Shown: positions 19,086 through 43,801 of the stretch, in pieces
How the letters are laid out: each line of letters starts with the position of its first letter
Position numbering within the stretch: position 1 is the first letter of the stretch
Assembly (NCBI RefSeq): GCF_018918325.1
Contig: NZ_JAHLQH010000053.1
Coordinates: 23,165-87,164, forward strand
DNA length: 64,000 bases
Direction of reading: 5' to 3'
Source: Clostridium sp. MSJ-8
Lineage (GTDB): Bacteria > Bacillota > Clostridia > Clostridiales > Clostridiaceae
Notes under the pieces: generated by a model
What the model was told of the DNA's origin: nothing
The model's database searches: none
The model's input: the letters and a program-made list of their open reading frames with translations, nothing else
Translations under genes and position numbers: made by a program

Positions 19086-19319
19086 ATGGCAAATCCTTAT
19101 GAATTAATTGCTAAGATTCAACAAAGAATGCAAGATCCTGTATTCGCATCTCAGTTTAATTCCTTAATTCAAAAGTTAAATAGTATTCCTGGATTACAAC
19201 AAGAAGTTATGAGAATAGCAAAGATAGAGGATCCTAATAAAAGGCAGAAAGCTATTAATAGACTTCCACCTAAGGTAAAATCAACAGTAGAAGAAATGAT
19301 GAGATTACTTAATAGCTAA
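19086..19319 (+). CDS. small conserved protein of unknown function
   Basis: A 77-residue soluble, helical protein beginning MANPYELIAKIQQRMQDP, without Cys or membrane segments. The regular hydrophobic spacing (FNSLIQKLNSIPGLQQEV, VEEMMRLLNS) suggests a helical bundle. GGGAG lies nine bases before the ATG. It follows spoIVFB by 40 bases and may share its transcript. I recognise the type as a clostridial conserved protein but know no function. Confidence 0.7.
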   Translation: MANPYELIAKIQQRMQDPVFASQFNSLIQKLNSIPGLQQEVMRIAKIEDPNKRQKAINRLPPKVKSTVEEMMRLLNS

Positions 19320-19348
19320 ATTAAGTACTTCTAATTGTTATAAAAATA

Positions 19349-19426
19349 AGTAAAGATCCATAAATGCTATAAACTTGCTATAGTTTAGATAGCAGAGCAT
19401 TTTTGATGGAATCTTTACTATTTTTT
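19349..19426 (+). terminator. large branched hairpin with T-run
   Basis: AGTAAAGAT(C)CAT at 19349-19361 pairs with ATGG(A)ATCTTTACT (ending 19419), and AATGCT (19363-19368) pairs with AGCATT (19396-19401). Inside is a second stem, GCTAT/ATAGC with AAAC/GTTT. Six T residues follow. It ends the preceding operon just before the RiPP promoter. Confidence 0.75.
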
Positions 19427-19486
19427 ATAAAAAATAGTCTGACTTAACATAATAAATTAAAGGAATATTTACGTTTACATATTTTG

Positions 19487-19515
19487 TTGACATATGTAGT
19501 CTATTGGATTAAAAT
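19487..19515 (+). promoter_or_regulatory. promoter of the RiPP locus
   Basis: TTGACA (19487-19492) and TAAAAT (19510-19515) are separated by 17 bases, a near-consensus sigma-A promoter. The start would be near 19522, about 57 bases ahead of the first precursor gene. Confidence 0.8.
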
Positions 19516-19531
19516 GAGGTTAGTGAGAATA

Positions 19532-19573
19532 ATGGATAAAATTGTATTAATGCGTATTATCGAAAGGGGGTGA
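19532..19573 (+). CDS. possible 13-codon upstream ORF
   Basis: ATG 19532 opens a 13-codon frame (MDKIVLMRIIERG) ending at TGA 19571-19573, five bases before the first precursor ATG. Its ribosome-site context (GTGAGAATAATGGA) is a near copy of the context of precursor 1 (GTGAGAATAATGGA at 19572-19583), so it may be a relic of a duplicated start region. Its last codons form the GGGGGTGA ribosome site of the precursor. Translation is unproven. Confidence 0.25.
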   Translation: MDKIVLMRIIERG

Positions 19574-19578
19574 GAATA

Positions 19579-19725
19579 ATGGAAAAAGATGAAAAGATAA
19601 TAGATGAGTTATTTGAGGAATTAACAGAAGAAACTCAATTAGCTTCAGATGCATCATGTGGAGGCGGAATATGTTCTGCATGTCATTGCAATTTTACAAC
19701 TCCTTGGAGCAGCTATGGATGGTAA
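19579..19725 (+). CDS. RiPP precursor peptide, copy 1
   Basis: A 48-residue peptide. Residues 1-25 are an acidic leader: MEKDEKIIDELFEELTEE, then TQLASDA. The core begins at Ser26/Cys27 and holds Cys27, Gly28-30, Cys32, Cys35, Cys37, then Phe39-Thr-Thr-Pro, Trp43-Ser-Ser and Tyr46-Gly-Trp48 at the end. The ribosome site GGGGGTGA is very strong. The downstream genes (four radical SAM enzymes and a C39 exporter) identify it as their substrate by context. Cys plus aromatic content allows thioether (sactipeptide or ranthipeptide) or aromatic carbon-carbon crosslinks. No canonical Gly-Gly cleavage motif is present. I know no named family that it matches. Confidence 0.88.
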   Translation: MEKDEKIIDELFEELTEETQLASDASCGGGICSACHCNFTTPWSSYGW

Positions 19726-19765
19726 AGGGTACATAGATGAAAGGATTGAAAAGAGGTGAAAATAT

Positions 19766-19912
19766 ATGGAAAAGGACGAAAAAATAATAGACGAGCTATT
19801 TGAGGAATTAACAGAAGAAACTCAATTAGCTTCAGATGCATCATGTGGAGGCGGAATATGTTCTGCATGTCATTGCAATTTTACAACTCCTTGGAGTAGT
19901 TATGGTTGGTAA
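19766..19912 (+). CDS. RiPP precursor peptide, copy 2 (identical product)
   Basis: It encodes exactly the same 48 residues as copy 1. The two genes differ at eight bases, all synonymous: five in codons 3, 4, 6, 9 and 11, and three in codons 44, 45 and 47. About 100 bases in between are identical. AAAGAGGTGAAA gives a good ribosome site. The spacer of 40 bases between copies holds no terminator, so both are probably on one mRNA. Perfect protein conservation with silent changes at the ends suggests selection on the peptide together with gene conversion of the middle. Confidence 0.88.
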   Translation: MEKDEKIIDELFEELTEETQLASDASCGGGICSACHCNFTTPWSSYGW

Positions 19913-19936
19913 TAAGTAATACCAAATAAATAAAAT

Positions 19937-19982
19937 GGGTTATTATAAAATTTTATTGAAAATAAGTTTTATAATAACCTTT
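19937..19982 (+). terminator. stem-loop between precursors and maturases, probably leaky
   Basis: GGTTATTATAAAA (19938-19950) and TTTTATAATAACC (19967-19979) form a perfect 13-bp stem, extended by one G-U pair. Only a weak tract (TTTAATTT) follows. Such structures often protect an abundant precursor mRNA and reduce read-through to the enzymes. Confidence 0.7.
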
Positions 19983-20032
19983 AATTTAAGTTAGTAATAG
20001 TATTTTTTTAGGAAGTGTTAAAGAGGTATTTT

Positions 20033-21250
20033 ATGATTGAAGTATATAACAATTTCATACATTATACAGATAAAAAAAATAATAGATTTGTTATTAAAAA
20101 AGAAAATTATAAGGATGTTTTAAATTATATTAGTAAGGGATTTTATAGTCCTTATATAGAAGAGTTAAAAAAAATAAATGTAAATATACAAGATGAAATT
20201 TTTAGAGATAAAAGTAAGTTAATTAAAGCAATGAAATTGTCACTTGATTGTATAGAATATTCGTTACCAATACCTAATACTTTTAATATTGAATTAACTA
20301 CTAAATGTCCCTTAAGATGTCCACAATGTTATTGTTATCTTGATTGTGGTAAAAATATAGACTTAGAAATTGCAAAAAAGTATATTATTGAAGCAGGAAA
20401 ATTGGGAATTAATTATGTTAATTTAAGTGGAGGAGAAACTTTAGCATATCCCTATTTAAAAGAGATAATTGCTTGTTGTAAGGAAAATGAGGTAAAACCT
20501 TCAATTGCTATAAGTGGGTGGAACTTTTCAAAAGAATTATTAAGTGAATTGATTGATAATGGAATTGAATATATATTTGTATCACTTAATGGATCTACAG
20601 AAGAAATAAATTCTAAGAGCAGAGATGGATATGGATATGCCATTAATGCATTAAAGATATTAAAAAACAGTAATTTTCATGGATATTTTATAAATTGGGT
20701 TGCGCATAATGATAATATAAAGGATTTTCATAATATGGTTAGACTGGCTAAATATTATAGAGCTAAGGGGATATGTATATTAAGTGCCAAACCTGATTCA
20801 AATGACGAAATGAAAACTAAACCTACAATTGATAATTTTAAAGCGTTAGGAGATTATATAAAAACGTTTAAAGATGATAGTTTAGAGCTTTCAATAGAAA
20901 ATTGTTATAGTTCATTAAGGTTTTATGTTTATGGAGATAAGATAATTAGAAGTAGCTGCTTAGCTGGAAAGACTAATTTTTCTATATCTGTAAATGGAAG
21001 ATTTACAGCATGTAGGCATATTGAGCATGAGGAAGAGTTTGATAGTATAAAAGATTATTGGAAAAATTCAAGTTTCTTATATAAGTTAAGAAGAAGTTTT
21101 GCAAATCCAAAAGAACCGTGTTTAAGTTGTGAATATAATAAGAAATGCACTCCGTGTGCTGCTGTAAATTATAGAATATACAAGAAACTATTTAAGGGAA
21201 ATGAATTTTGCTATGTTAGTAAATTAAAGATGGAGGCACCAAATGAATAA
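20033..21250 (+). CDS. radical SAM/SPASM peptide maturase 1 (PqqE-like)
   Basis: A 405-residue enzyme. Residues 1-85 precede the radical SAM core and may be a leader-binding element. Cys92, Cys96 and Cys99 (CPLRCPQC) bind the SAM [4Fe-4S] cluster, and LSGGETLAYP is the SAM-binding turn. The C-terminal SPASM domain has GRFTAC and a CLSCEYNKKCTPC cluster plus a final Cys, so it should carry auxiliary Fe-S clusters. The start is ATG 20033 (AAAGAGG six bases upstream) rather than GTG 20015. It overlaps the next gene by eight bases. Predicted to modify the precursor core; the reaction is not deducible from sequence. Confidence 0.88.
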   Translation: MIEVYNNFIHYTDKKNNRFVIKKENYKDVLNYISKGFYSPYIEELKKINVNIQDEIFRDKSKLIKAMKLSLDCIEYSLPIPNTFNIELTTKCPLRCPQCYCYLDCGKNIDLEIAKKYIIEAGKLGINYVNLSGGETLAYPYLKEIIACCKENEVKPSIAISGWNFSKELLSELIDNGIEYIFVSLNGSTEEINSKSRDGYGYAINALKILKNSNFHGYFINWVAHNDNIKDFHNMVRLAKYYRAKGICILSAKPDSNDEMKTKPTIDNFKALGDYIKTFKDDSLELSIENCYSSLRFYVYGDKIIRSSCLAGKTNFSISVNGRFTACRHIEHEEEFDSIKDYWKNSSFLYKLRRSFANPKEPCLSCEYNKKCTPCAAVNYRIYKKLFKGNEFCYVSKLKMEAPNE

Positions 21251-22319
21251 AATAGTTACATGTAATGAGAATACATCTGGAATTGCGTTACAATTACACA
21301 TAACTGGAAGATGTAATCAAAAATGCAAACATTGTTATCATAATGAATATTTAAATGAACCTATGAAATTAGAAGATATTAGATTAATTATTGAACAATA
21401 TAAAGAATTAATTTCTAAGTATAATGACAATAAAAAAATTAAAGAAATAGGACATATAAGTGTAACAGGTGGGGAACCTTTTATTAGAAATGATTTTATG
21501 GATATACTAAAAATATTTTGCGACAATAGAGAATATTTTAAATTTTCAATTTTGACAAATGGCAGTTTTATTACAGAAGAAGTAGCTAAGAAATTAATAT
21601 CATATGGAGTTAATGATGTTCAAGTTAGTATTGATGGTAGTATGAAAACACATGATTTTATTAGAGGAGAAGGAAATTTTAATCAAACATTTAAAGCAAT
21701 TGATATTTTAGTTAAGTATAAAATTCCTACTATAGTTTCATTTACAGCTAATAAGTTTAATTATATGGAATTTGAAGAAGTGGCTAGATGTTGTGAAAAA
21801 CATAGAGTTAATATATTGTGGTCAGATAGATTAGTACCTATAGGCAACGGAAAGAAAATGTATGATCAGTGTTTATCACCAACGGAAACATTAGAATATT
21901 TTAAAATTATGAAAAAAGTTCAAGATGATTTTAGAAAAAGAAAATCATTAACATACATCTCTATTGATAGGGCACTTCAGTTTATTGTTACAAAACAAAT
22001 CCCTCATAGATGCGTAGCAGGGGATTCCTTAATAACTATAGATGAATTTGGGAACTTATTGCCATGTAGAAGAATGCCAATAAAATGTGGAAATGTATTA
22101 AAAGATAATTTATCTAATTTATATTTCAATAGTGAAATAATGAATGAATTAAGAACAAGAAAAGTTTCGAGCGAGTGTTCAAAGTGTAGATTTCAGAAGA
22201 CATGTAATGGTGGTGCTAAGTGCATTTCTTATGCAATAAATAATGATTTTAACAAAGCAGAACCGTTTTGTCCATTAATATATTATAAAAGAAATAATAA
22301 TATTAGAAATTTACAATAA
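21243..22319 (+). CDS. radical SAM/SPASM peptide maturase 2
   Basis: A 358-residue enzyme whose radical SAM motif begins almost at the N-terminus: Cys24, Cys28, Cys31 in GRCNQKCKHCYHNEY. SVTGGEPF is the SAM-binding turn. The SPASM region holds GNLLPCRRMPIKCGNV, CSKCRFQKTC and NGGAKC. There is no N-terminal recognition domain, so it may depend on a partner or a separate element to bind the leader. ATGGAGGC within the end of maturase 1 is its ribosome site, and the genes overlap, so translation is coupled. It is a close paralogue of the following gene. Confidence 0.88.
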   Translation: MNKIVTCNENTSGIALQLHITGRCNQKCKHCYHNEYLNEPMKLEDIRLIIEQYKELISKYNDNKKIKEIGHISVTGGEPFIRNDFMDILKIFCDNREYFKFSILTNGSFITEEVAKKLISYGVNDVQVSIDGSMKTHDFIRGEGNFNQTFKAIDILVKYKIPTIVSFTANKFNYMEFEEVARCCEKHRVNILWSDRLVPIGNGKKMYDQCLSPTETLEYFKIMKKVQDDFRKRKSLTYISIDRALQFIVTKQIPHRCVAGDSLITIDEFGNLLPCRRMPIKCGNVLKDNLSNLYFNSEIMNELRTRKVSSECSKCRFQKTCNGGAKCISYAINNDFNKAEPFCPLIYYKRNNNIRNLQ

Positions 22320-22351
22320 GAATAAGCTATATAAAGTTATGGAGGATAAAT

Positions 22352-23410
22352 ATGAATAAAACTGTAATAACTAGTTTAAAGTCACAGTTATTGATGCAAT
22401 TACATGTGACAGGACGCTGTAATCAAAAGTGTAAGCACTGTTATCATAATGAATATGTTGATGAGCCTTTAACATTGGATAGTATAAGAAATATAATAAA
22501 TCAATATGTAGAATTGCTAGATAAGTATAATAAAGTAAAGAATATTAATTGTATGGGGCATATTAATGTAACTGGAGGAGAACCTTTTGTTAGAAAAGAT
22601 TTTTTCGATATTTTAGAAATGTTTTATGAAAATAGAAGATACTTTTCTTTTGGAGTATTAACAAATGGAAGTTATATAACAGATGAAAATGCAAAATTGT
22701 TAAAAGAGTTAGGTGTTAGTAATGTTCAAGTTAGTATTGATGGTGACAAGGAAATTCATGATTATATAAGAGGTCAAGGAAACTATGATCAGACATTTGA
22801 AGCTGTAGATAAATTAAGAAAAAACAATATAAGAACTACTGTTTCATTTACAGCTAGTAAATTAAATTACAAGAAGTTCCCAGATGTTGCTAAGGCTTGT
22901 AAAGAACATGATGTCTCAAGGCTATGGTCAGATAGGATTGTACCCATAGGTAATGGAAGTATGCTGAAAGAGCAATGTCTAAGTGCACCAGAGTGTTTAG
23001 AATTATTTAAGATTATGAAGGAAGAACAAGACAAAGCTCTTGCTGAAAATTCTAATACAGAAATATTTATAAAGAGGGCTTTACAATTTATTGTGACTAA
23101 AAAAGATATATATGGTTGTAGTGCAGGTGATACAGCACTTACAATAGATGAATATGGTAATATTCTTCCATGTAGAAGAATGCCAATAAAATGTGGCAAT
23201 GTGTTAAAAGAAAATTTAAGCGATGTTTATTTTAATAGTGAAATTATGAATGATTTAAGAAAAAAAGAAGTATGCAAAGAATGCGAACAATGTAGATTTA
23301 GAAATAATTGTAATGGAGGAGCAAAATGTATTTCTTATGCAATTAATAAAGATTATAAAATAGCAGATCCATTTTGTCCTTTAATTTTTTATAGAAGAAA
23401 TAAAAATTAG
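22352..23410 (+). CDS. radical SAM/SPASM peptide maturase 3 (paralogue of maturase 2)
   Basis: A 352-residue enzyme, collinear with maturase 2 over its full length and by eye well over half identical. Shared blocks include GRCNQKCKHCYHNEY (Cys23, Cys27, Cys30), NVQVSIDG versus DVQVSIDG, LPCRRMPIKCGNVLK and NGGAKCISYAIN. It arose by tandem duplication and has diverged most around residues 220-250. Both copies keep all cluster Cys, so both should be active, perhaps on different positions of the core. TGGAGG lies before the ATG. Confidence 0.88.
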   Translation: MNKTVITSLKSQLLMQLHVTGRCNQKCKHCYHNEYVDEPLTLDSIRNIINQYVELLDKYNKVKNINCMGHINVTGGEPFVRKDFFDILEMFYENRRYFSFGVLTNGSYITDENAKLLKELGVSNVQVSIDGDKEIHDYIRGQGNYDQTFEAVDKLRKNNIRTTVSFTASKLNYKKFPDVAKACKEHDVSRLWSDRIVPIGNGSMLKEQCLSAPECLELFKIMKEEQDKALAENSNTEIFIKRALQFIVTKKDIYGCSAGDTALTIDEYGNILPCRRMPIKCGNVLKENLSDVYFNSEIMNDLRKKEVCKECEQCRFRNNCNGGAKCISYAINKDYKIADPFCPLIFYRRNKN

Positions 23411-23419
23411 GAGGAAAAT

Positions 23420-25186
23420 ATGTTTACTGTTAATGTTTTGGAGAGAAGAGATAATAAAATTTTATATATTAAAGAAATTAATAATAGTATATTGATCAAT
23501 AAAGATGAAAAATTAAAAGAAGGAATATATCAATTATCAGTTGATGAAATATTAGAAATAATAAAAAGAAATGCTAGTGCTGAATATGATAAATTTAATA
23601 AAATAATAATGAATTATATTTCTAAAAGTAATATCAAAATGGATACACCTCCAAAGGATTATTCAGTATATATTTTATGTATGCATCCATCAAGAAATTG
23701 TAATTTGTCATGTAAATATTGTTTCGCAAAAGAAGGAGAAAAATATTTACCTAAAGAAGGCATAGATATTAAAACTGCCCAGAAAGCTATAGATTTTTTA
23801 GTTGATGATTATGGAAGAAAAGGTATAAAGTATCAAGTAGATATATCAGGTTCAGGAGAACCATTATTGAAATTTGATTTTATAAAGAAATTAGAAGAAT
23901 ATTGTGAAGAGAAAAGTAATGAAACGGGAAAAGAAATAAAAATAACATTTCCAACTAATGCTACATTATTAAATGATGAAATGGTTAATTATTTTAATAA
24001 TGAGTCTAATATTCTAATAGGAATAAGTTTAGATGGTAATGCAAGACAATCTGCTAATAGACTTCTTCAAGATGGACGTGATGCTTATAGTAGTATAGTA
24101 AAAGGTGCAAAATTATTAAATAGACCTTTTGGTATTGCTGTTACAATAACACACATAAATGAAGATGTTGATGAAGTGTATGATCATTTGTATAATGAAT
24201 TTCCTAAAGCAGATTCTATAAGCATGCAATTTGTTAGAAATTATGATCTAGATTCAAACATATCTTTTTATAAGATAGACATAGATAACGTAATATATCA
24301 TTATGAAAAATTAGTAGATAGATTGTTTATGAAAATTAATAATTCTGATTATGAGTATGTATTGAAATTATTAAGAGGTGCAGATACATTTGGAAAATAT
24401 ATTTATAGATGTTTAAATAGGGGAGTTATAAGAAATCAGAGATGTGGAGCAGGAAAAGGAACAATATGTGTTGATGATAATGGAGATATATATTCATGTA
24501 GTGTAGCAAATGGTGATGAATATTTCAAAATAGGTAGCATACAAGAAGGAATTGATGAGGAAAAACAATTAAAATTTAAAAAAGCAAATGTTAATGAAAG
24601 TGTATCTTGTAGAAAGTGTTGGGGAGCATACATTTGTGGAGGAGAATGTTTAGTAAAAGCATATTTAAGTAATAAAAATATATATGAACCTAATAAAAAA
24701 ATATGTGAACTTAAGTTAAGATTAATTGAAATTGCAGTATACTTTGTTGAAAAACTAAAGCATGATAATATTGAAGCGTATAATTATTTGAGAAAGTTTA
24801 AAGTTGATAGCACTAGAGACGACACAAGCTTATGGGTTATTCATAAGTATTTAAAAAGCAGGAATATATATGTTACTTATAAGGAATTAATGAATAATGC
24901 CAAAAGAACATCATATGGATTTAGAGCTAATGACTTAGTTGACTATGTGAAAAAATATGATGAAAATTTACATGTAATAAAAATTAATAATGTAGATGAA
25001 TATTCTAATATTACATATCCAGCAATAGCATATGTTAATAAAAATAAATATTACTATCAGTATTTATTTATAAATGATATGAGAGATGGAAATATAGAAT
25101 TAATAGATATAAAAAATGATAATGTAATAAAAGTTCCAATTAAATATTTTTGTGAGGAAATTTCTAACATTATTATGTTTAGTTAG
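23420..25186 (+). CDS. radical SAM maturase 4 with C-terminal C39-like domain
   Basis: A 588-residue protein. Residues 1-88 are a distinct N-terminal region. The radical SAM core starts at Cys94, Cys98, Cys101 (CNLSCKYCF), with DISGSGEPLL as the SAM turn. The SPASM-type C-rich region is at about 340-430 (CGAGKGTIC, YSCSVANG, CRKCWGAYICGGEC). Residues 463-588 match, by eye, the pattern of a C39 peptidase such as that of the next gene: a helix with IHKYLKSRNIYVTYKEL, then YPAIAYVNKNKYYYQYLFI, then IELIDIKNDNVIKVPIKYF. The catalytic Cys and His are absent. This would make it a binding rather than a cleaving module. It begins nine bases after maturase 3. Confidence 0.82.
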   Translation: MFTVNVLERRDNKILYIKEINNSILINKDEKLKEGIYQLSVDEILEIIKRNASAEYDKFNKIIMNYISKSNIKMDTPPKDYSVYILCMHPSRNCNLSCKYCFAKEGEKYLPKEGIDIKTAQKAIDFLVDDYGRKGIKYQVDISGSGEPLLKFDFIKKLEEYCEEKSNETGKEIKITFPTNATLLNDEMVNYFNNESNILIGISLDGNARQSANRLLQDGRDAYSSIVKGAKLLNRPFGIAVTITHINEDVDEVYDHLYNEFPKADSISMQFVRNYDLDSNISFYKIDIDNVIYHYEKLVDRLFMKINNSDYEYVLKLLRGADTFGKYIYRCLNRGVIRNQRCGAGKGTICVDDNGDIYSCSVANGDEYFKIGSIQEGIDEEKQLKFKKANVNESVSCRKCWGAYICGGECLVKAYLSNKNIYEPNKKICELKLRLIEIAVYFVEKLKHDNIEAYNYLRKFKVDSTRDDTSLWVIHKYLKSRNIYVTYKELMNNAKRTSYGFRANDLVDYVKKYDENLHVIKINNVDEYSNITYPAIAYVNKNKYYYQYLFINDMRDGNIELIDIKNDNVIKVPIKYFCEEISNIIMFS

Positions 25187-25228
25187 TTTTTTTACTACAA
25201 ATACAAATTAATTTAAAGGTGAAGAATA

Positions 25229-27382
25229 ATGAAATTATCTAAAAAATATCCATATGTTAAACAAATGGATGATAATGATTGTGGGCCAGCATGTTTAGCA
25301 ACAGTCTTGAAGTATTATAAGTATAAAATATCTATAACAAGACTAAGAGAAATATGCAAAACAGATATTAACGGTACAACTATGTTAGGCTTAATTAAAG
25401 CAGCGCAAAAGTTAGGCTTTTCTGCAAAGGGGGTTAATGGAAAAGGGATAAAAGCATTAAAAAGTAATTTTCCAAAGCCCGCTATAGCACATGTTATATA
25501 TGGTGATGGAGTAAGGCATTATGTTGTTTTGTATGAAGTAACAGATAGTAAAGTTATAGTTGCTGATACTGGCAGAGGTATTATTACTTATAGCATAGAG
25601 GAATTCTTAAAAATATGGAGTGGTAAACTAATATTTTTAATTCCTCCAAGTGAATTTAAAGAGAATGAATATAAAAATCCGTATATAAGATTTGTAAAGC
25701 TGATAAGTATGCAGAAGAAATTAATTATATCAATTTTTTTTGCATCTTTATTTATAGCTATACTGGGTATTTTAGGGAGTTTTTATTATAAGATATTAAT
25801 AGATAATGTTATACCTAATAATTTATATAATAAGTTAAAATTTGTTTCTATAACTATGATATGTATTGTATCGCTAAAGACAATTATTGAATTATTACGT
25901 AATATACTACTATTATTTATTTCCAAGAATATAGATGTTCAATTATTATTAGGATATTATAGCCATATATTAAAATTACCTATGGAATTCTTTGAATCAA
26001 GAGATGTAGGAAGCATAATTTCAAGGTTTAATGATGGTGTAAAAATAAGAGATGCAATAAGTTCAACTGCTGTAACTGTATTTCTTGATACTCTTATGGC
26101 TGTTGTAGGAGGAATAATATTATATAGGTTGAGCGGAATAATGTTCTTTGTTTGTTTTATACCGATAGTAATTTATTTGTTCCTAGTTGTTAAATTCAAA
26201 TCTAAAATAGAAGAAAGCAATAGAGATGTTATGGAAAATAATTCAAAAGTAACTTCTTATTTAGTGGAATCCATTGAAGGAGTTGAAGTTATTAAATCCT
26301 ATAATTCAGAAGAATATAATGTAAGAAAATTTAAAAAAAGATTTAATTACTATATGGAGTCTTTGTTTAAAAATGGTTTTATTCTAAACATTCTAGAATC
26401 CTTAAAGGGAATAACAAAAGTTGTATTTGGAATTTGTATACTATGGTTAGGAGCATATTTAACTCTTAAAGGTCAGGTAACAGTAGGAACATTTATTAGT
26501 TTTAATGCTTTATTGGCATATTTTATTGAGCCTATAGAAAGAGTAATTAATTTGCAATCTCAGATACAAAGTGCAATGGTAGCTGCTGATAGATTAGGGC
26601 AAATATTAGATTTACAAATTGAAAGTTATAAAAATGATAGGAAGAGTTTGTCTTTGGCAGGAGATATTATTTTTGAAAATATTACATTTAGATATGGATT
26701 TAGAAGAATTATTTTACAAGATTTCAATTTACATATAAAGAATAAAGAAAGAATAGCACTAGTTGGGGAAAGTGGTTCTGGAAAAACTACCATAGTAAAA
26801 ATTCTTATGAAATTTTATGAAATTGAAAAAGGTAAAATTACAATAAATTCTAATGATTTAGTGGATATTTCACCAAGACAATTACGAAATCGAATTGCAT
26901 ATATATCTCAAGAATCTTATTTTTTCTCTGGAACAATTAGAGAAAATTTATTAATAGGAAATAATGATGCTAGTGAAGAAGATATGGTAAATATATGCAA
27001 GAAGGTATTTATTCATGATTATATTATGAGTCTTCCAAAAAAATATGATAATGTTTTATCAGAAAAAGCTATGAACTTATCAGGGGGACAAAGACAAAGA
27101 CTAGCTATTGCAAGAGCTTTGTTGAAAAAACCTGATATATTGATTATGGATGAGGCTACATCAAATTTAGATTCTATAACAGAGAAGGCTTTAGAAAAAA
27201 CTATTAATGAATGTACTAATGGTATAACAACAATAATAATAGCACATAGATTAAGTACAATAAAAAATTGTGACAGAATCTTTGTAATTGAAGATGGACA
27301 AATTATAGAAGAAGGATCTCATGAAGAGTTATTAAATAATAAAGGTGAATATTGCTATATGTGGAATAAGCAATTTTCATAA
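25229..27382 (+). CDS. C39-peptidase ABC exporter (PCAT) for the modified peptide
   Basis: A 717-residue half-transporter. The C39 peptidase (1-145) has Cys18 in DDNDCGPACL, His97 in RHYVVL and Asp113 in VADTGRG, all intact. A five- to six-helix ABC membrane domain spans about 165-450. The nucleotide-binding domain has Walker A GESGSGKTT (Lys519), signature LSGGQRQRLAIARAL, Walker B ILIMDEATSNLD and the switch His in IIIAHRLSTI. It should remove the leader of the precursor and export the product. It is the last gene of the locus; no immunity gene or regulator is seen before the next promoter. Confidence 0.94.
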   Translation: MKLSKKYPYVKQMDDNDCGPACLATVLKYYKYKISITRLREICKTDINGTTMLGLIKAAQKLGFSAKGVNGKGIKALKSNFPKPAIAHVIYGDGVRHYVVLYEVTDSKVIVADTGRGIITYSIEEFLKIWSGKLIFLIPPSEFKENEYKNPYIRFVKLISMQKKLIISIFFASLFIAILGILGSFYYKILIDNVIPNNLYNKLKFVSITMICIVSLKTIIELLRNILLLFISKNIDVQLLLGYYSHILKLPMEFFESRDVGSIISRFNDGVKIRDAISSTAVTVFLDTLMAVVGGIILYRLSGIMFFVCFIPIVIYLFLVVKFKSKIEESNRDVMENNSKVTSYLVESIEGVEVIKSYNSEEYNVRKFKKRFNYYMESLFKNGFILNILESLKGITKVVFGICILWLGAYLTLKGQVTVGTFISFNALLAYFIEPIERVINLQSQIQSAMVAADRLGQILDLQIESYKNDRKSLSLAGDIIFENITFRYGFRRIILQDFNLHIKNKERIALVGESGSGKTTIVKILMKFYEIEKGKITINSNDLVDISPRQLRNRIAYISQESYFFSGTIRENLLIGNNDASEEDMVNICKKVFIHDYIMSLPKKYDNVLSEKAMNLSGGQRQRLAIARALLKKPDILIMDEATSNLDSITEKALEKTINECTNGITTIIIAHRLSTIKNCDRIFVIEDGQIIEEGSHEELLNNKGEYCYMWNKQFS

Positions 27383-38489: not shown

Positions 38490-38577
38490 ATTTATATAAA
38501 ATAAATAAGGGAAAATATTCTATGAAATAATATATTTGGATTTATATAATAACTAATTTTTGAAAGGGGAATTTAGA

Positions 38578-41139
38578 ATGGGCAAGAAATCTGAAGGTAT
38601 AAAAAAAGAATGTAGCAGAGCCAAATTATATGTTGGTATATTTTTATCTGTTATGCTTATTGCTATGTTAGCTATAGAATTTATTCCAAGGGGTGTAGTT
38701 GCACATAGTGAAAGTACAATAGTTAAAGATGATAGTGGTAAAGAGATGTTTACTGTTCCGGCAACATTTTATGATTATAGAAGCGATAGTGAATTATATA
38801 GTAGTGATGGAAAGATAAATAATTGTGAGAATGATAAATTTGATCATTATGCATTTGAGGAGTTTAATGAATATATTGCTGATTATTATAAGAATAATAA
38901 TATGAGTGTTCCATTATATTTTGGGGATTTTTGCAATTATGATGAAGATAATAAAGGTGCCGACTTAACAAAAGGAGTACCAGGTTCAGCAACTTATGAT
39001 TTTAAGTGGGTAGCCAATAGAGCTAATAGAAATGATTATTCAGCAGCTGTTGCAGGATTAGTTGATAGTAACTTAACTAATGGAAATATATCTAAAGATG
39101 GCGTTGCATTACCATATTTTAATGAAGAATATTTAACATCAACTAAGGTAAATGGTCGTTCAATAGGTACTGCTGTAACATCAGTAATGCCATTTAGATT
39201 AACAGAAGATAATGGTGTTCAATATTATGAATTTAACAGTAATGGTGGGAAAGATAACATATGGTTTGATAATGGACAATTAAAATATTCAAGTAATGCT
39301 GATAAACATGGCGTATGGAATGCTATATATGCAATGACTGGACAAGGAAAGGCTCAAGGAGTAACAGATGGTATTGGTTTCTTCCCATTTAATAATAGAG
39401 AAGTAGAAGGAACTAATGATGATAGAAGTTTATTGAATTTTGGATTTGGGGTAAAGATGGATATAAACTTCAAAGTTCCTAGAGGTGGAGTTGTAAAAGA
39501 TAACAATGGCAATAGTCAAGATGTAGTATTTGATTTTGAAGGTGATGACGATGTTTGGGTATTCGTTGATGGTAAGCTTGTACTAGACCTTGGAGGTCAA
39601 CATAAAGGTAGTAAAGGTAGTATTAATTTCAATAGTAACAAACTATATAGTATTGCAAATTCTGTAATTACTAATGTAAATGATGACTTAAATCAAGGTG
39701 CTACTTATAATAAACAAGTTAGTTTATCAGATTTAGGATTAGATTTTACTGATCCTACTGAAGAACATAAAATAACAATGTATTATATGGAACGTGGTAT
39801 GATTGAGTCTAATATGAAGGTTAAATTTAACTTTATTAACACAGATACATTAGCATTAGAGAAGAATGTTGATACATCAAATGTTAATAGTGCATTAGTA
39901 AACGAAGTAAAAGATATAGCTTCAAATGATGACTTTGATTTTACTATAGAAAAGAAAGAAGGTAGTGAATTAAAGCCTGTTGCTAACAAAAATTATATTA
40001 TGAGTGGAAGTGAAAACTCTGATAATTTAATAACAGATGCTAATGGTAAGCTTACATTAAAGGATGGGCAACAAGCAGAATTTATAGCAGAGTTTAAGAA
40101 AAATGATATTTTAAGAATTTGTGAGGGGGACAATGATAAATATACAACTAATGCAGTTATATATAGTGGTGATAATGTAATAAAAACAATAGATGGTAAA
40201 GATACAGGAGAATTTACATTCTCAACAGATAATGCTAGGGATGTATTTAAGAAGATAATATATACAAACAAAATAAATACTGGATCAATAAATATTAATA
40301 AGAAACTTTCACAATATGCAGAAGATAATATTAATGGTTCAGGTGATGTGGTCTTCTCTTTCCAAGTTAAGCTTAAAAATATTTGGGGAAATAACAATGG
40401 AAGTGAGTATACAGCTTATCCAGTTAAATATACAGTGGGTGGAAAGACTAAGACTGCAAAAGATGGAATAGTAAAGATTAAAGCAGGTGAAACAGCAAGT
40501 ATTACAGGAATTCCAGTTGGTACAAGCTATACAATAGAAGAAATAAATATACCAGAAGGATATGAACTTGCAGAAAGTAATAATACTGAAGGAACTGTAA
40601 CAGCAGATAGTAGTAGTAAGAATGTAATGTTTTTAAATGGAACTACTAAATACAACCTAATATTACAGAAAACTATAGACAATAAATACTATAAATCAGA
40701 TGATAAATTTAGTAACAATGAAACATACGAAGATTTAACTAGTTGTAATCAAAGTTTCTTGTTTACTATTAACCAATATGATTTAAGCGGTAATTATGTA
40801 AAGACATTCTATGAAGTAATAAGCTTCGATAAGAATGATGGATTAACTAAACAAAGAGTTATAAGTGATTTACCAGCAGGATATTATGAAGTAATAGAAG
40901 ATACTTCATGGTCATGGAAGTATAAGTTTAAAAATGTAACTGTTACACCGAAAGCAGAACAAACTGAAGTTAAATATGATAGGAAAAATGCAAAAGTAAG
41001 TAAAGTTTATTTAGGATATAAGATAAAAACAACACCAGTAGTTGAATTTAAAAATGCATTGAAGTATACAAATAAAACACATGATGAGACACCTGAAGGA
41101 GATACAGATATAGAAACTAATACATTAAAAAACAATTAG
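38578..41139 (+). CDS. fibro-slime domain surface protein with SpaA-like repeats
   Basis: An 853-residue exported protein. A signal helix lies at about 12-33 (LYVGIFLSVMLIAMLAIEF). A fibro-slime/PA14-like domain (about 50-425) has the signature FDFEGDDDVWVFVDGKLVLD followed by LGGQHKG. Then come three Ig-like modules of SpaA/Cna-B type (about 425-830), with INKKLSQYAEDNINGSGDVVFSF, a PVGTSYTIEEINIPEGYEL loop and a final DLPAGYYEVIEDTSW. Such modules often form isopeptide bonds. No LPXTG motif or C-terminal helix is present, so it is not sortase-anchored by itself. The start is ATG 38578 behind GAAAGGGG. It is first in an operon with sipW, and presumably a fibre component or adhesin. Confidence 0.85.
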   Translation: MGKKSEGIKKECSRAKLYVGIFLSVMLIAMLAIEFIPRGVVAHSESTIVKDDSGKEMFTVPATFYDYRSDSELYSSDGKINNCENDKFDHYAFEEFNEYIADYYKNNNMSVPLYFGDFCNYDEDNKGADLTKGVPGSATYDFKWVANRANRNDYSAAVAGLVDSNLTNGNISKDGVALPYFNEEYLTSTKVNGRSIGTAVTSVMPFRLTEDNGVQYYEFNSNGGKDNIWFDNGQLKYSSNADKHGVWNAIYAMTGQGKAQGVTDGIGFFPFNNREVEGTNDDRSLLNFGFGVKMDINFKVPRGGVVKDNNGNSQDVVFDFEGDDDVWVFVDGKLVLDLGGQHKGSKGSINFNSNKLYSIANSVITNVNDDLNQGATYNKQVSLSDLGLDFTDPTEEHKITMYYMERGMIESNMKVKFNFINTDTLALEKNVDTSNVNSALVNEVKDIASNDDFDFTIEKKEGSELKPVANKNYIMSGSENSDNLITDANGKLTLKDGQQAEFIAEFKKNDILRICEGDNDKYTTNAVIYSGDNVIKTIDGKDTGEFTFSTDNARDVFKKIIYTNKINTGSININKKLSQYAEDNINGSGDVVFSFQVKLKNIWGNNNGSEYTAYPVKYTVGGKTKTAKDGIVKIKAGETASITGIPVGTSYTIEEINIPEGYELAESNNTEGTVTADSSSKNVMFLNGTTKYNLILQKTIDNKYYKSDDKFSNNETYEDLTSCNQSFLFTINQYDLSGNYVKTFYEVISFDKNDGLTKQRVISDLPAGYYEVIEDTSWSWKYKFKNVTVTPKAEQTEVKYDRKNAKVSKVYLGYKIKTTPVVEFKNALKYTNKTHDETPEGDTDIETNTLKNN

Positions 41140-41148
41140 GTGATTAAG

Positions 41149-41637
41149 ATGAAAGCAATTAATGTAATATCAAAAATCTTAAAATATATAGTAATAATAA
41201 TAGTAATAGCTATGATAACAACGTTAGTTATACCCAAGTTTATTGGATATACACCTTACACAGTTATAACTGGAAGTATGGAACCTAAGTATCATGTAGG
41301 CTGTGTAACTTATGTAAAGCCAGTGGCTTTTGACGAATTAAAAGATGGAGATGTTATTACCTTCACTACAGGATCACTTACAGTGACTCATAGAATAGTG
41401 AGCGTAGATAAAGAAAATCAAACTGTAATAACCAAAGGAGATGCCAATAACACAGAAGATGGTTCAATTTCTTATGGCAATATAAGAGGAAGAGCAACTA
41501 ATTTCTCAATACCATATTTGGGATATGCAATTGTATGGGTTAGTACAGTAAAAGGCAAAATTTTATTATTAGTTATATTAGCTGGTTTGTCTGCTGCAAG
41601 CGCTATATTAAAGTCTCTTGCAAGTGAACAAAAGTAA
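41149..41637 (+). CDS. sipW: SipW-type (ER-type) signal peptidase I
   Basis: A 162-residue membrane protease with N- and C-terminal helices. Ser43 lies in VITGSMEPKY, and His81 in LTVTHRIVSV replaces the Lys of ordinary bacterial signal peptidases, which defines the SipW/archaeal type; GDANNTEDG is the third conserved box. In Bacillus SipW processes TasA and TapA; here its substrates should be the four proteins encoded next, which carry the matching signal peptides. The start is ATG 41149 using AGGTGATT that overlaps the end of the previous gene. Confidence 0.93.
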   Translation: MKAINVISKILKYIVIIIVIAMITTLVIPKFIGYTPYTVITGSMEPKYHVGCVTYVKPVAFDELKDGDVITFTTGSLTVTHRIVSVDKENQTVITKGDANNTEDGSISYGNIRGRATNFSIPYLGYAIVWVSTVKGKILLLVILAGLSAASAILKSLASEQK

Positions 41638-41669
41638 GCTCATATATAAATATGAAAAGAGGTGATTTG

Positions 41670-42242
41670 ATGATTAAAAAGCACAAGATAGCAATAAGTG
41701 TTGTAGGAATACTTATTATATCAGCAGCAGTGTTTGGATGTGTAAAAAACAACACGTTTGCATTCTTATCTCAGAACACTGAACAAAGACAAAATGATTT
41801 TTCACCAAAGAAATATACTGATGTTGAGATAGAAGAACCTAATGGAAATTCTTACATCATTGGTGTTGATGGAAAACTAGATCAAGAAAAAAAGGTAACA
41901 TTTAATAATCCGGATAAAAGCAATAAAAATGAATATATAAGAGCTAAAGTGGTAGCCATTATAAGAAATGAAGATGGAAGTAATGCAGGAGAATGTCCAG
42001 ACTTAAGCATACAATATTCATTAGATTACAATTGGGTTGAGAAGAATGGATATTATTATTACACTGATGTAGTTATACCTGGAAAGGGTACATCAGAGTT
42101 ATTTTATGATATATCAGTTAAACAGAGTACTTTAGATACTCTAAAACCAGGACAATATATTGAAGTAAATGTTATAGCAGATTCAATTGAATCAACTAAA
42201 GTGATGGAAGCATGGGGACTTGATCCTAGTAAATTAAGTTAA
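41670..42242 (+). CDS. SipW-dependent TasA/BsaA-like protein 1
   Basis: A 190-residue exported protein. The signal segment is a helix at about 5-24, then NNTFAFLSQNT, the A-x-L-(S/T) motif of SipW substrates. The mature part is a beta-sandwich type like TasA/camelysin (VEIEEPNG start, YIRAKVVAIIRNED, PGKGTSELFYDISV). It is shorter than the next two. A Cys in VFGCVKN just before the cleavage region looks like a weak lipobox, but there is no clear lipoprotein context. The start is ATG 41670 behind AAAGAGGTGA. Perhaps a minor or capping subunit. Confidence 0.78.
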   Translation: MIKKHKIAISVVGILIISAAVFGCVKNNTFAFLSQNTEQRQNDFSPKKYTDVEIEEPNGNSYIIGVDGKLDQEKKVTFNNPDKSNKNEYIRAKVVAIIRNEDGSNAGECPDLSIQYSLDYNWVEKNGYYYYTDVVIPGKGTSELFYDISVKQSTLDTLKPGQYIEVNVIADSIESTKVMEAWGLDPSKLS

Positions 42243-42314
42243 AATTTTAAATTAAAAATATATTATTAACAGATTATTAAATTAAGTAAAGTTATTTTTA
42301 GGAGGTAATTATAC

Positions 42315-43076
42315 ATGAAAAAGGCAAAGAAAAAGATAGCAATGATAATAGCTACAATAGCAGTAGTAGCAGTAAGTTTTGGAGCAACTTATGCATTCTT
42401 AACAGATCAAACTAAAGAGGTACAAAATGAATTTACTCCAAATGATAATATTAAGGTTGAAATAGAAGAACCAAACTGGGATGGCGATGAAGATGGTGAT
42501 GGACATTATGGTAAGAAAGATGCAGAAAACTATACAGCTGCACAATTAATTGAAAAAGACCCTTACCTTGTAAATGCATCAACTGCAGCTAATCATACAG
42601 ACGAATATGTAGCAATGGAATTACATTATGAAATAAAAGGTACTGATGGAAGTATGCATGAAGTAACATATGCAGAATTCAATAAGTTAGCAACAGTTTA
42701 CTATAAAGGTACAGAAGGATTTAATAGTGATTGGAAAGCATTAGCTGATTATGAAAATGGAGAAAATGATAGATTCTATTACGGAGATTTAACTGTATTA
42801 GAAAAAGATGCTAAGACTTCTCCAATATTTGATGAAGTAAAGATTAATCCAGCATTAACATTAAATCAATACGATGCAGAAGGTAACGTTGTTTTAGATG
42901 AATCAGGAAATCCTGTAGAAGCTAAATTAACTTTAACAGATATAAATGGAAACTCATTTACAACTAAAGGAATGCCTGAATTCCAAATCAAAGTTAAAGG
43001 TTTTGCAGTACAAGCTGATAATATAGAAATATCAGAAGCTAAAACTGAATTATTAAACTTAATGAAAGCAAACTAG
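42315..43076 (+). CDS. SipW-dependent TasA/BsaA-like fibre protein 2
   Basis: A 253-residue protein with a lysine-rich N-terminus, a hydrophobic helix, and SFGATYAFLTDQTKEVQNEF, the typical SipW cleavage context. The mature chain begins IKVEIEEPNWDGDEDGDGHY. Conserved TasA-like pieces are DEYVAMELHYEI and a closing EFQIKVKGFAVQADNI. The AGGAGGT site is strong and codon use is regular, so high expression is likely; it is the best candidate for the major fibre subunit. Assignment to the TasA/camelysin superfamily is by motif and gene context. Confidence 0.85.
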   Translation: MKKAKKKIAMIIATIAVVAVSFGATYAFLTDQTKEVQNEFTPNDNIKVEIEEPNWDGDEDGDGHYGKKDAENYTAAQLIEKDPYLVNASTAANHTDEYVAMELHYEIKGTDGSMHEVTYAEFNKLATVYYKGTEGFNSDWKALADYENGENDRFYYGDLTVLEKDAKTSPIFDEVKINPALTLNQYDAEGNVVLDESGNPVEAKLTLTDINGNSFTTKGMPEFQIKVKGFAVQADNIEISEAKTELLNLMKAN

Positions 43077-43108
43077 ATTAGAGAGTTATTGAAGTAGGAG
43101 GAAAAGTT

Positions 43109-43801
43109 ATGATAAATAAAGATAGTAAATTAAAGAAGATATTAAAAGGAACAGCTGCATTAGCTGTAGTTGCAGGAATAACTATAGGAGCTACTTATGC
43201 TTTCTTAAGTGATAAGACAGAAGAGAAAGTAAATACATTTAAAGCATCATCAGATATAGAATTAGAATTAACAGAACCTAATTGGGATCAAACAGGAGAA
43301 GCTAGTCACTTTGCGCCAGGTTCAGAAATTCCTAAGGACCCAACAGTTACTGTTCCAGAATCAAGTTCACAAGATGAATATGTTGCAGCAACAGTTAAAT
43401 ATTATGTTGATTTAAATGGTGATAAGAAATATACAGCTAATGAAGAAATAAGCTATGATGAATTCACATCAACTTATGCAACAATATCAGGATATAACAC
43501 AACAGATTGGACTCCAAATGCAGATAAATCAATTTATTATTTTGGTACTTCTGCAACAGATCCACAAGGATTAAATGTATTTAAGAAGGGAAATGACTCT
43601 GTAATATTTGAAAAAGTAACAGTTAATAAGAATATTCCAACTTATACTGAAGATACAACAGCATATAAAAAGGGAACTCCAATTGCATTTAGAATAGATG
43701 TTAAAGCATATGGTGTACAAGATAGTTTAACAAAGGATCAAGGATATCAAGCATTAAACTTAATGATAGAAGGAAAAGATCCAAACTCAGTTATAAAATA
43801 A
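43109..43801 (+). CDS. SipW-dependent TasA/BsaA-like fibre protein 3
   Basis: A 230-residue paralogue of the preceding protein: signal GITIGATYAFLSDKTEEKVN, mature start DIELELTEPNWDQTG, then DEYVAATVKYYVD and FRIDVKAYGVQDSL near the end. The two share the framework but differ in the middle. It begins 32 bases after its neighbour with TAGGAGGAAA upstream. Being a diverged copy beside the likely major subunit, it may be a second fibre subunit or an assembly partner. Confidence 0.85.
   Translation: MINKDSKLKKILKGTAALAVVAGITIGATYAFLSDKTEEKVNTFKASSDIELELTEPNWDQTGEASHFAPGSEIPKDPTVTVPESSSQDEYVAATVKYYVDLNGDKKYTANEEISYDEFTSTYATISGYNTTDWTPNADKSIYYFGTSATDPQGLNVFKKGNDSVIFEKVTVNKNIPTYTEDTTAYKKGTPIAFRIDVKAYGVQDSLTKDQGYQALNLMIEGKDPNSVIK

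What the first reader, a model, noticed from the sequence alone, without database searches (positions are those of the whole stretch)
19487..27382. Compact RiPP locus: two identical precursors, four radical SAM enzymes, a C39 exporter
Seen: a near-consensus promoter, two 48-residue precursor genes, a stem-loop, four consecutive genes each with a CxxxCxxC radical SAM motif and extra Cys clusters, and an ABC exporter with an intact C39 peptidase. Known: this logic (precursor, rSAM/SPASM maturase, C39 exporter) is that of sactipeptides, ranthipeptides and related classes. Inference: four rSAM enzymes for one core is unusually many and suggests several different crosslinks on a short peptide. I cannot assign the precursor to a class I know. 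No immunity gene or regulator is evident, so the product may be a signal rather than an antimicrobial.
Basis: partly seen in the sequence, partly recalled or inferred. Interest (0 to 1): 0.93.

Follow-up and report, generated by a model that had tools for sequence, protein, structure and literature searches.

The report
Peptide-linking cluster with dead peptidase domain
A clostridial gene cluster encodes two identical copies of a small cysteine-rich peptide ending in tryptophan, four radical SAM enzymes and a peptide exporter; one enzyme carries a predicted peptidase-like fold that has lost its catalytic residues and would hold the peptide's leader while the peptide is likely cross-linked before export.

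The parts
19330..19430 (+). strong hairpin after the upstream 77-aa gene, likely end of the upstream transcript
   Evidence: fold z -5.9, 0 of 200 shuffles as good; terminator role inferred
19487..19515 (+). promoter-like site TTGACA-17-TAAAAT
   Evidence: 11 of 12 bases, but number of such sites in the region is as expected by chance
19579..19725 (+). precursor peptide gene, copy 1 (48 aa)
19766..19912 (+). precursor peptide gene, copy 2 (same 48 aa)
   Evidence: family
19937..19980 (+). stem-loop between precursors and enzymes, possibly setting precursor-to-enzyme ratio
   Evidence: function inferred
20033..21250 (+). rSAM1, radical SAM gene with seven Cys in a SPASM-like arrangement; nearest solved structure PqqE
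21243..22319 (+). rSAM2, radical SAM/SPASM, no N-terminal domain
22352..23410 (+). rSAM3, tandem paralogue of rSAM2 (62% identical)
23420..25186 (+). rSAM4, CteB-like radical SAM/SPASM maturase with C-terminal C39-like domain
24809..25183 (+). C39-like domain of rSAM4 (residues 464-588), catalytic Cys and His absent
25229..27382 (+). ABC exporter with active-type N-terminal C39 peptidase
   Evidence: TIGR01193 above cut-off; C18, H97, D113

Best explanation
This is a predicted RiPP cassette in which a 48-residue Cys-rich precursor ending in Trp is likely cross-linked by four radical SAM enzymes and then cleaved and exported by a C39 transporter, and the fourth enzyme carries a predicted C39-like fold without catalytic residues that would hold the precursor's leader. 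Shown: the genes, their motifs, and a precursor family with conserved LFEE and DASCGG and a C-terminal Trp. Inferred: (1) the N-terminal RRE-type part of rSAM4, perhaps also that of rSAM1, reads the LFEEL segment; rSAM2 and rSAM3 have no such part and would depend on it, so the enzymes act as a complex or relay. (2) rSAM4, being CteB-like, makes Cys thioethers; rSAM2/3 act on the Cys/Ser/Gly stretch; rSAM1, nearest to PqqE, works at the invariant C-terminal Trp. (3) The C39-like domain binds the leader near the GG that the exporter's live C39 domain later cuts, keeping the peptide uncut until finished and then handing it on. (4) Cleavage after DASC-GG would release a core of 12-19 residues.
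Against: No chemistry, binding or cleavage was tested. The hydrophobic -4/-7/-12 pattern that C39 domains read is absent relative to the GG in 10 of 10 precursors, and LFEE-to-DASC spacing is 13 or 17 residues, so leader binding by a C39 fold is not the textbook mode. rSAM4 already has an RRE-type N-terminal part, so a second leader-binding domain is not required. Relatives of rSAM1 and rSAM2/3 occur outside such operons. The direct HMM comparison of the C39-like domain with the two exporters alone was weak (probability 19.8%, E 0.0011).
Confidence: 0.5

Rival explanations
1. The C39-like domain of rSAM4 is a docking domain, not a leader binder: it sits on the exporter's membrane part in place of a peptidase domain and tethers the maturation enzymes to the transporter.
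For: Same fold as the exporter's own peptidase domain; rSAM4 has another candidate leader-binding part; no canonical C39-binding pattern in the leader.
Against: No interaction surface was tested; nothing here shows contact with the exporter.
Confidence: 0.22
2. An ordinary thioether-type (ranthipeptide-like) peptide cluster in which rSAM4 does the work, the C39-like domain is a structural leftover, and the other radical SAM enzymes make minor or redundant changes.
For: rSAM4 is clearly CteB-like; rSAM2 and rSAM3 are paralogues.
Against: All four genes are kept in both operons; W472 and Y548 of the C39-like domain are kept in 61 of 62 members, G500 and P534 in 57 of 62, which argues against a leftover.
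Confidence: 0.2
3. The peptide carries an iron-sulfur cluster: its C-x4-C-x2-C stretch resembles a [2Fe-2S] ferredoxin loop.
For: Weak Pfam match to Fer2 (E 6e-4, 20.1 bits, cut-off 21).
Against: Below cut-off; the spacing is lost in relatives: P0128 and P0130 have two Cys in all, P0123 has C-x3-C-x2-C.
Confidence: 0.03

Closest known systems
CteB / SCIFF ranthipeptide maturase (PDB 5wgg; TIGR03974). That 5wgg is CteB is recalled.
   Different: extra C39-like domain; 187.3 bits against a cut-off of 425; a different precursor; three further radical SAM genes
PapB-type ranthipeptide maturase (NF047865)
   Same: related radical SAM/SPASM core (184.7 bits)
   Different: below cut-off 340; no extra domain in the model (covers residues 87-424 of rSAM4)
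Non-catalytic C39-like domain (CLD) of HlyB-type exporters
   Same: C39 fold without catalytic Cys; substrate recruitment there (PMC6363468)
   Different: there on an ABC exporter, here on a radical SAM enzyme; His position lost too
ACGX system radical SAM protein (TIGR04340) and the CSSC-repeat neighbours
   Same: best family of rSAM2 and rSAM3; Cys/Ser/Gly-rich neighbours
   Different: 147.5 and 149.9 bits of 400; those partners are 296-524 aa proteins, not a 48-aa exported-type peptide
Thuricin CD (TrnC/TrnD)
   Same: more than one radical SAM enzyme for small Cys peptides; there shown to act as one complex (PMC12093266 passages)
   Different: two enzymes and two different precursors; no C39-like domain in the passages seen
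PCAT peptide exporters (TIGR01193; ComA, PCAT1, LahT)
   Same: exporter 25229-27382 is a member by score and residues
   Different: leader lacks the usual -4/-7/-12 pattern

Membership tests
Ranthipeptide, SCIFF type | maturase passes TIGR03974 cut-off | tested here: not met
   187.3 vs 425 bits
Ranthipeptide, SCIFF type | thioether between Cys and a non-alpha carbon in the product | not testable with these tools
   needs mass spectrometry or NMR
Ranthipeptide, SCIFF type | precursor matches a named NCBIfam peptide family | tested here: not met
   no family at E 0.001 for the window precursor; best among 10 members E 0.0088, to an oxidoreductase model
PapB-type ranthipeptide | maturase passes NF047865 cut-off | tested here: not met
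   184.7 vs 340 bits
ACGX system (TIGR04340) | radical SAM protein passes cut-off | tested here: not met
   147.5 (rSAM2) and 149.9 (rSAM3) vs 400 bits
PQQ / mycofactocin maturases | rSAM1 passes TIGR02109 or TIGR03962 cut-off | tested here: not met
   76.4 vs 381.35 and 66.9 vs 265 bits
C39 peptidase domain (rSAM4 C-terminus) | C39 fold | tested here: met
C39 peptidase domain (rSAM4 C-terminus) | catalytic Cys and His | tested here: not met
   T469 and Q547 in the window; no Cys and no His at these positions in 62 of 62 (alignment by sequence)
PCAT exporter (25229-27382) | TIGR01193 cut-off and catalytic residues | tested here: met
   658.4 vs 523.85 bits; C18, H97, D113
Double-glycine leader | GG before the core | tested here: met
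   DASCGG in 10 of 10; cleavage there untested
Double-glycine leader | hydrophobic residues at -4, -7 and -12 | tested here: not met
   with GG as -2/-1 the window precursor has S, S, E; none of 10 members has the pattern; rule from PMC10885120 and PMC6363468 passages
Sactipeptide | Cys to alpha-carbon thioether | not testable with these tools
   needs product analysis

The most novel reading that the evidence does not exclude
A new RiPP family in which the maturase has captured the exporter's own peptidase fold, stripped it of catalysis, and uses it to hold the same leader that the exporter later cuts: one recognition fold shared by modification and export, guiding four radical SAM enzymes that build several different cross-links, one of them at an invariant C-terminal tryptophan.
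Probability: 0.3. Interest if true: 0.8.

Novelty: new variant of a known kind. Interest (0 to 1): 0.62.

Why it matters
RiPP enzymes are known to find their substrate mostly through RRE domains (general knowledge). A maturase that carries a dead C39 peptidase would be another way and could explain how modification and export are ordered. The domain is small and can be tested with known C39 leader-binding and cleavage assays. The precursor family (LFEE...DASCGG...W) also gives a search motif for peptides that no NCBIfam model names.

Tried and rejected
L105 is a split, different radical SAM gene; G368 covers model positions 29-463 only and lies in a different cluster. A third precursor-like hit in the own genome (G000:C12, E 0.083, stop inside) was dropped as chance. 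A scan of all 179 loci then held for a loosened precursor motif found it only in the window's own genome and G036. The Fer2 resemblance was rejected. The rSAM1 model (2 sequences, pLDDT 55, pTM 0.50) is too poor for a fold claim; its first 68 residues are not covered by any listed row. Whether rSAM2/3 duplicated before or after the two operons split is undecided (12, 9 and 5 informative columns). The listed Foldseek rows (50 of 1250) show radical SAM chains only; the C39 rows come from the second look.

Paper searches (open-access library only) in whose listings I saw no C39 domain fused to a radical SAM maturase: no paper; 8 papers; 15 of 122 listed; 6 of 7 listed. Passages, not whole papers, were read of PMC10885120, PMC6363468, PMC8102284, PMC12093266, PMC8939145, PMC10352776, PMC11002830. 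One search ('ACGX', 8 of 28 listed) gave nothing relevant; (9 papers) gave the review cited.

Full report
Observation. The locus is as described, with exact coordinates 19579-19725 and 19766-19912 for the precursors, 20033-21250, 21243-22319, 22352-23410 and 23420-25186 for the radical SAM genes, and 25229-27382 for the exporter. Gaps between them are 40, 120, -8, 32, 9 and 42 bases. The two precursor genes give one protein but differ at 8 DNA positions, all silent (about 1.5e-6 by chance). A promoter-like site at 19487 matches 11 of 12 bases, yet the region as a whole has no more such sites than shuffled DNA (67 vs 70.3). A stem-loop lies between precursors and enzymes; the consensus scan does not call it a terminator, but the related operon L005 has a stem-loop at the same place. 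That it keeps precursor expression above that of the enzymes is my inference.

A cassette. In the relative G062 (L181) the 77-aa gene that precedes the cassette is followed after 107 bases by the counterpart of the TIGR03960 gene that here follows the exporter; in the window the same interval is 8,255 bases. Window DNA matches L181 up to 19300 and again from 27560. So about 8.2 kb is inserted here or lost there. In the other genome with the operon (G036, L005) it lies elsewhere, between a chemotaxis-receptor-like gene and ilvC (gene names by my reading of the translations). The precursor was found in 2 of 206 genomes of the family, the window's own and G036, and both have the full set of genes. 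The fused rSAM4 was found in 2 of 225 genomes of the order at E 1e-90. In a sample of 391 genomes of the class only the window's own has it at E 1e-75, besides a partial match without the C39-like domain; in 398 of the phylum only the window's own. These samples overlap. It is rare in assembled genomes.

Precursor family. Two protein searches gave nine database relatives besides the window peptide; one of them, P0123, is the G036 peptide. The ten share L-F-E-E, DASCGG and a final Trp, 10 of 10. P0124 and P0125 are nearly the same peptide, and P0002 comes from a 947-base contig and may be cut short. The stretch after DASCGG is 12-19 residues long with one to four Cys. Conserved front, variable back and fixed end fit a leader and core with cleavage after DASC-GG. 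Against that, the hydrophobic residues that C39 domains read at -4, -7 and -12 (passages of PMC6363468, and PMC10885120) are missing in all ten, and the distance from LFEE to DASC is 13 or 17 residues. The cleavage site is therefore open. P0124 and P0127 have the same longest-contig lengths as the rSAM4 relatives P0008 (11,249) and P0003 (61,460), which suggests shared contigs; I could not fetch them.

The other enzymes. For each radical SAM gene the 25 best NCBIfam families were shown (of 33, 68, 69 and 40); none of the family-level models among them reaches its cut-off, and only the general SPASM domain model TIGR04085 is passed, by rSAM4 (51.9 vs 27 bits). rSAM2 and rSAM3 are tandem paralogues (62% identical) that begin directly at the radical SAM core; their best family is TIGR04340, ACGX, at 147.5 and 149.9 bits of 400. 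In 200 genomes of the family 14 have a match at E 1e-60, which includes the window's own and G036. I read 9 of the 13 places outside the two operons: in 9 of 9 the upstream gene encodes a 296-524 residue protein that ends in repeats such as CSSCSSCSSCGGCGGD, including one in the window's own genome (L217). The precursor's SCGGGICSAC resembles these ends; that rSAM2/3 were recruited from such a system and still act on this kind of sequence is inference. rSAM1 is nearest to PqqE (76.4 of 381.35 bits; E 3e-15 to 6c8v). Its matches at E 1e-60 number 4 of 200 genomes: the window's own, G036, G093 and G201. The last two lack its N-terminal 70 or so residues and sit beside three genes that look like small GTPases (my reading), with no obvious precursor. 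Relatives without the operon count against a closed set of four.

Reading. The most economical account is a RiPP pathway with shared leader recognition: an RRE-type part and a dead C39 domain on rSAM4, and a live C39 domain on the exporter. Radical SAM partners working as one complex have precedent in TrnC/TrnD (PMC12093266 passages). Docking of the dead domain at the exporter is the main rival. A role in signalling is possible: a review reports that disrupting ranthipeptide genes of C. beijerinckii lowered sporulation genes and raised agr expression (PMC8102284 passages). That is a different peptide family, and nothing here tests it. Confidence 0.5 is for the account as a whole; the RiPP reading itself I hold much more firmly than the role of the dead domain.

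Noticed in passing
L217:5453-8010 (own genome, contig C7); also L209-L214, L218, L219: Radical SAM genes related to rSAM2/3 follow directly on genes for 296-524 aa proteins that end in Cys repeats such as CSSCSSCSSCGGCGGD (9 of 9 places read): a second, ACGX-like system in clostridia whose members miss the TIGR04340 cut-off.
   Followed up: partly
L215:4753-8563 and L216:498-4276: Shorter relatives of rSAM1 (43-46% identical) lie beside three adjacent genes that look like small GTPases in two genomes (reading of translations).
   Followed up: no
P0023 and P0032: Two different fused radical SAM-C39-like proteins have the same longest contig length, 50,781 bases, so one locus may hold two.
   Followed up: no
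window 38560-43801: Fibro-slime domain protein (TIGR02148, 51.5 vs 45 bits), a signal peptidase I (TIGR02228, 100.7 vs 51.85) and two related secreted-type proteins without NCBIfam match in a row; looks like a cell-surface fibre locus (inference).
   Followed up: partly
window 19086-19319: 77-aa protein without Pfam or NCBIfam match, found in 13 of 20 relatives searched, all 13 in the window's genus group.
   Followed up: partly
window 19579-19912: The precursor's Cys spacing gives a sub-threshold match to the [2Fe-2S] ferredoxin model Fer2; spacing is not kept in the family.
   Followed up: yes
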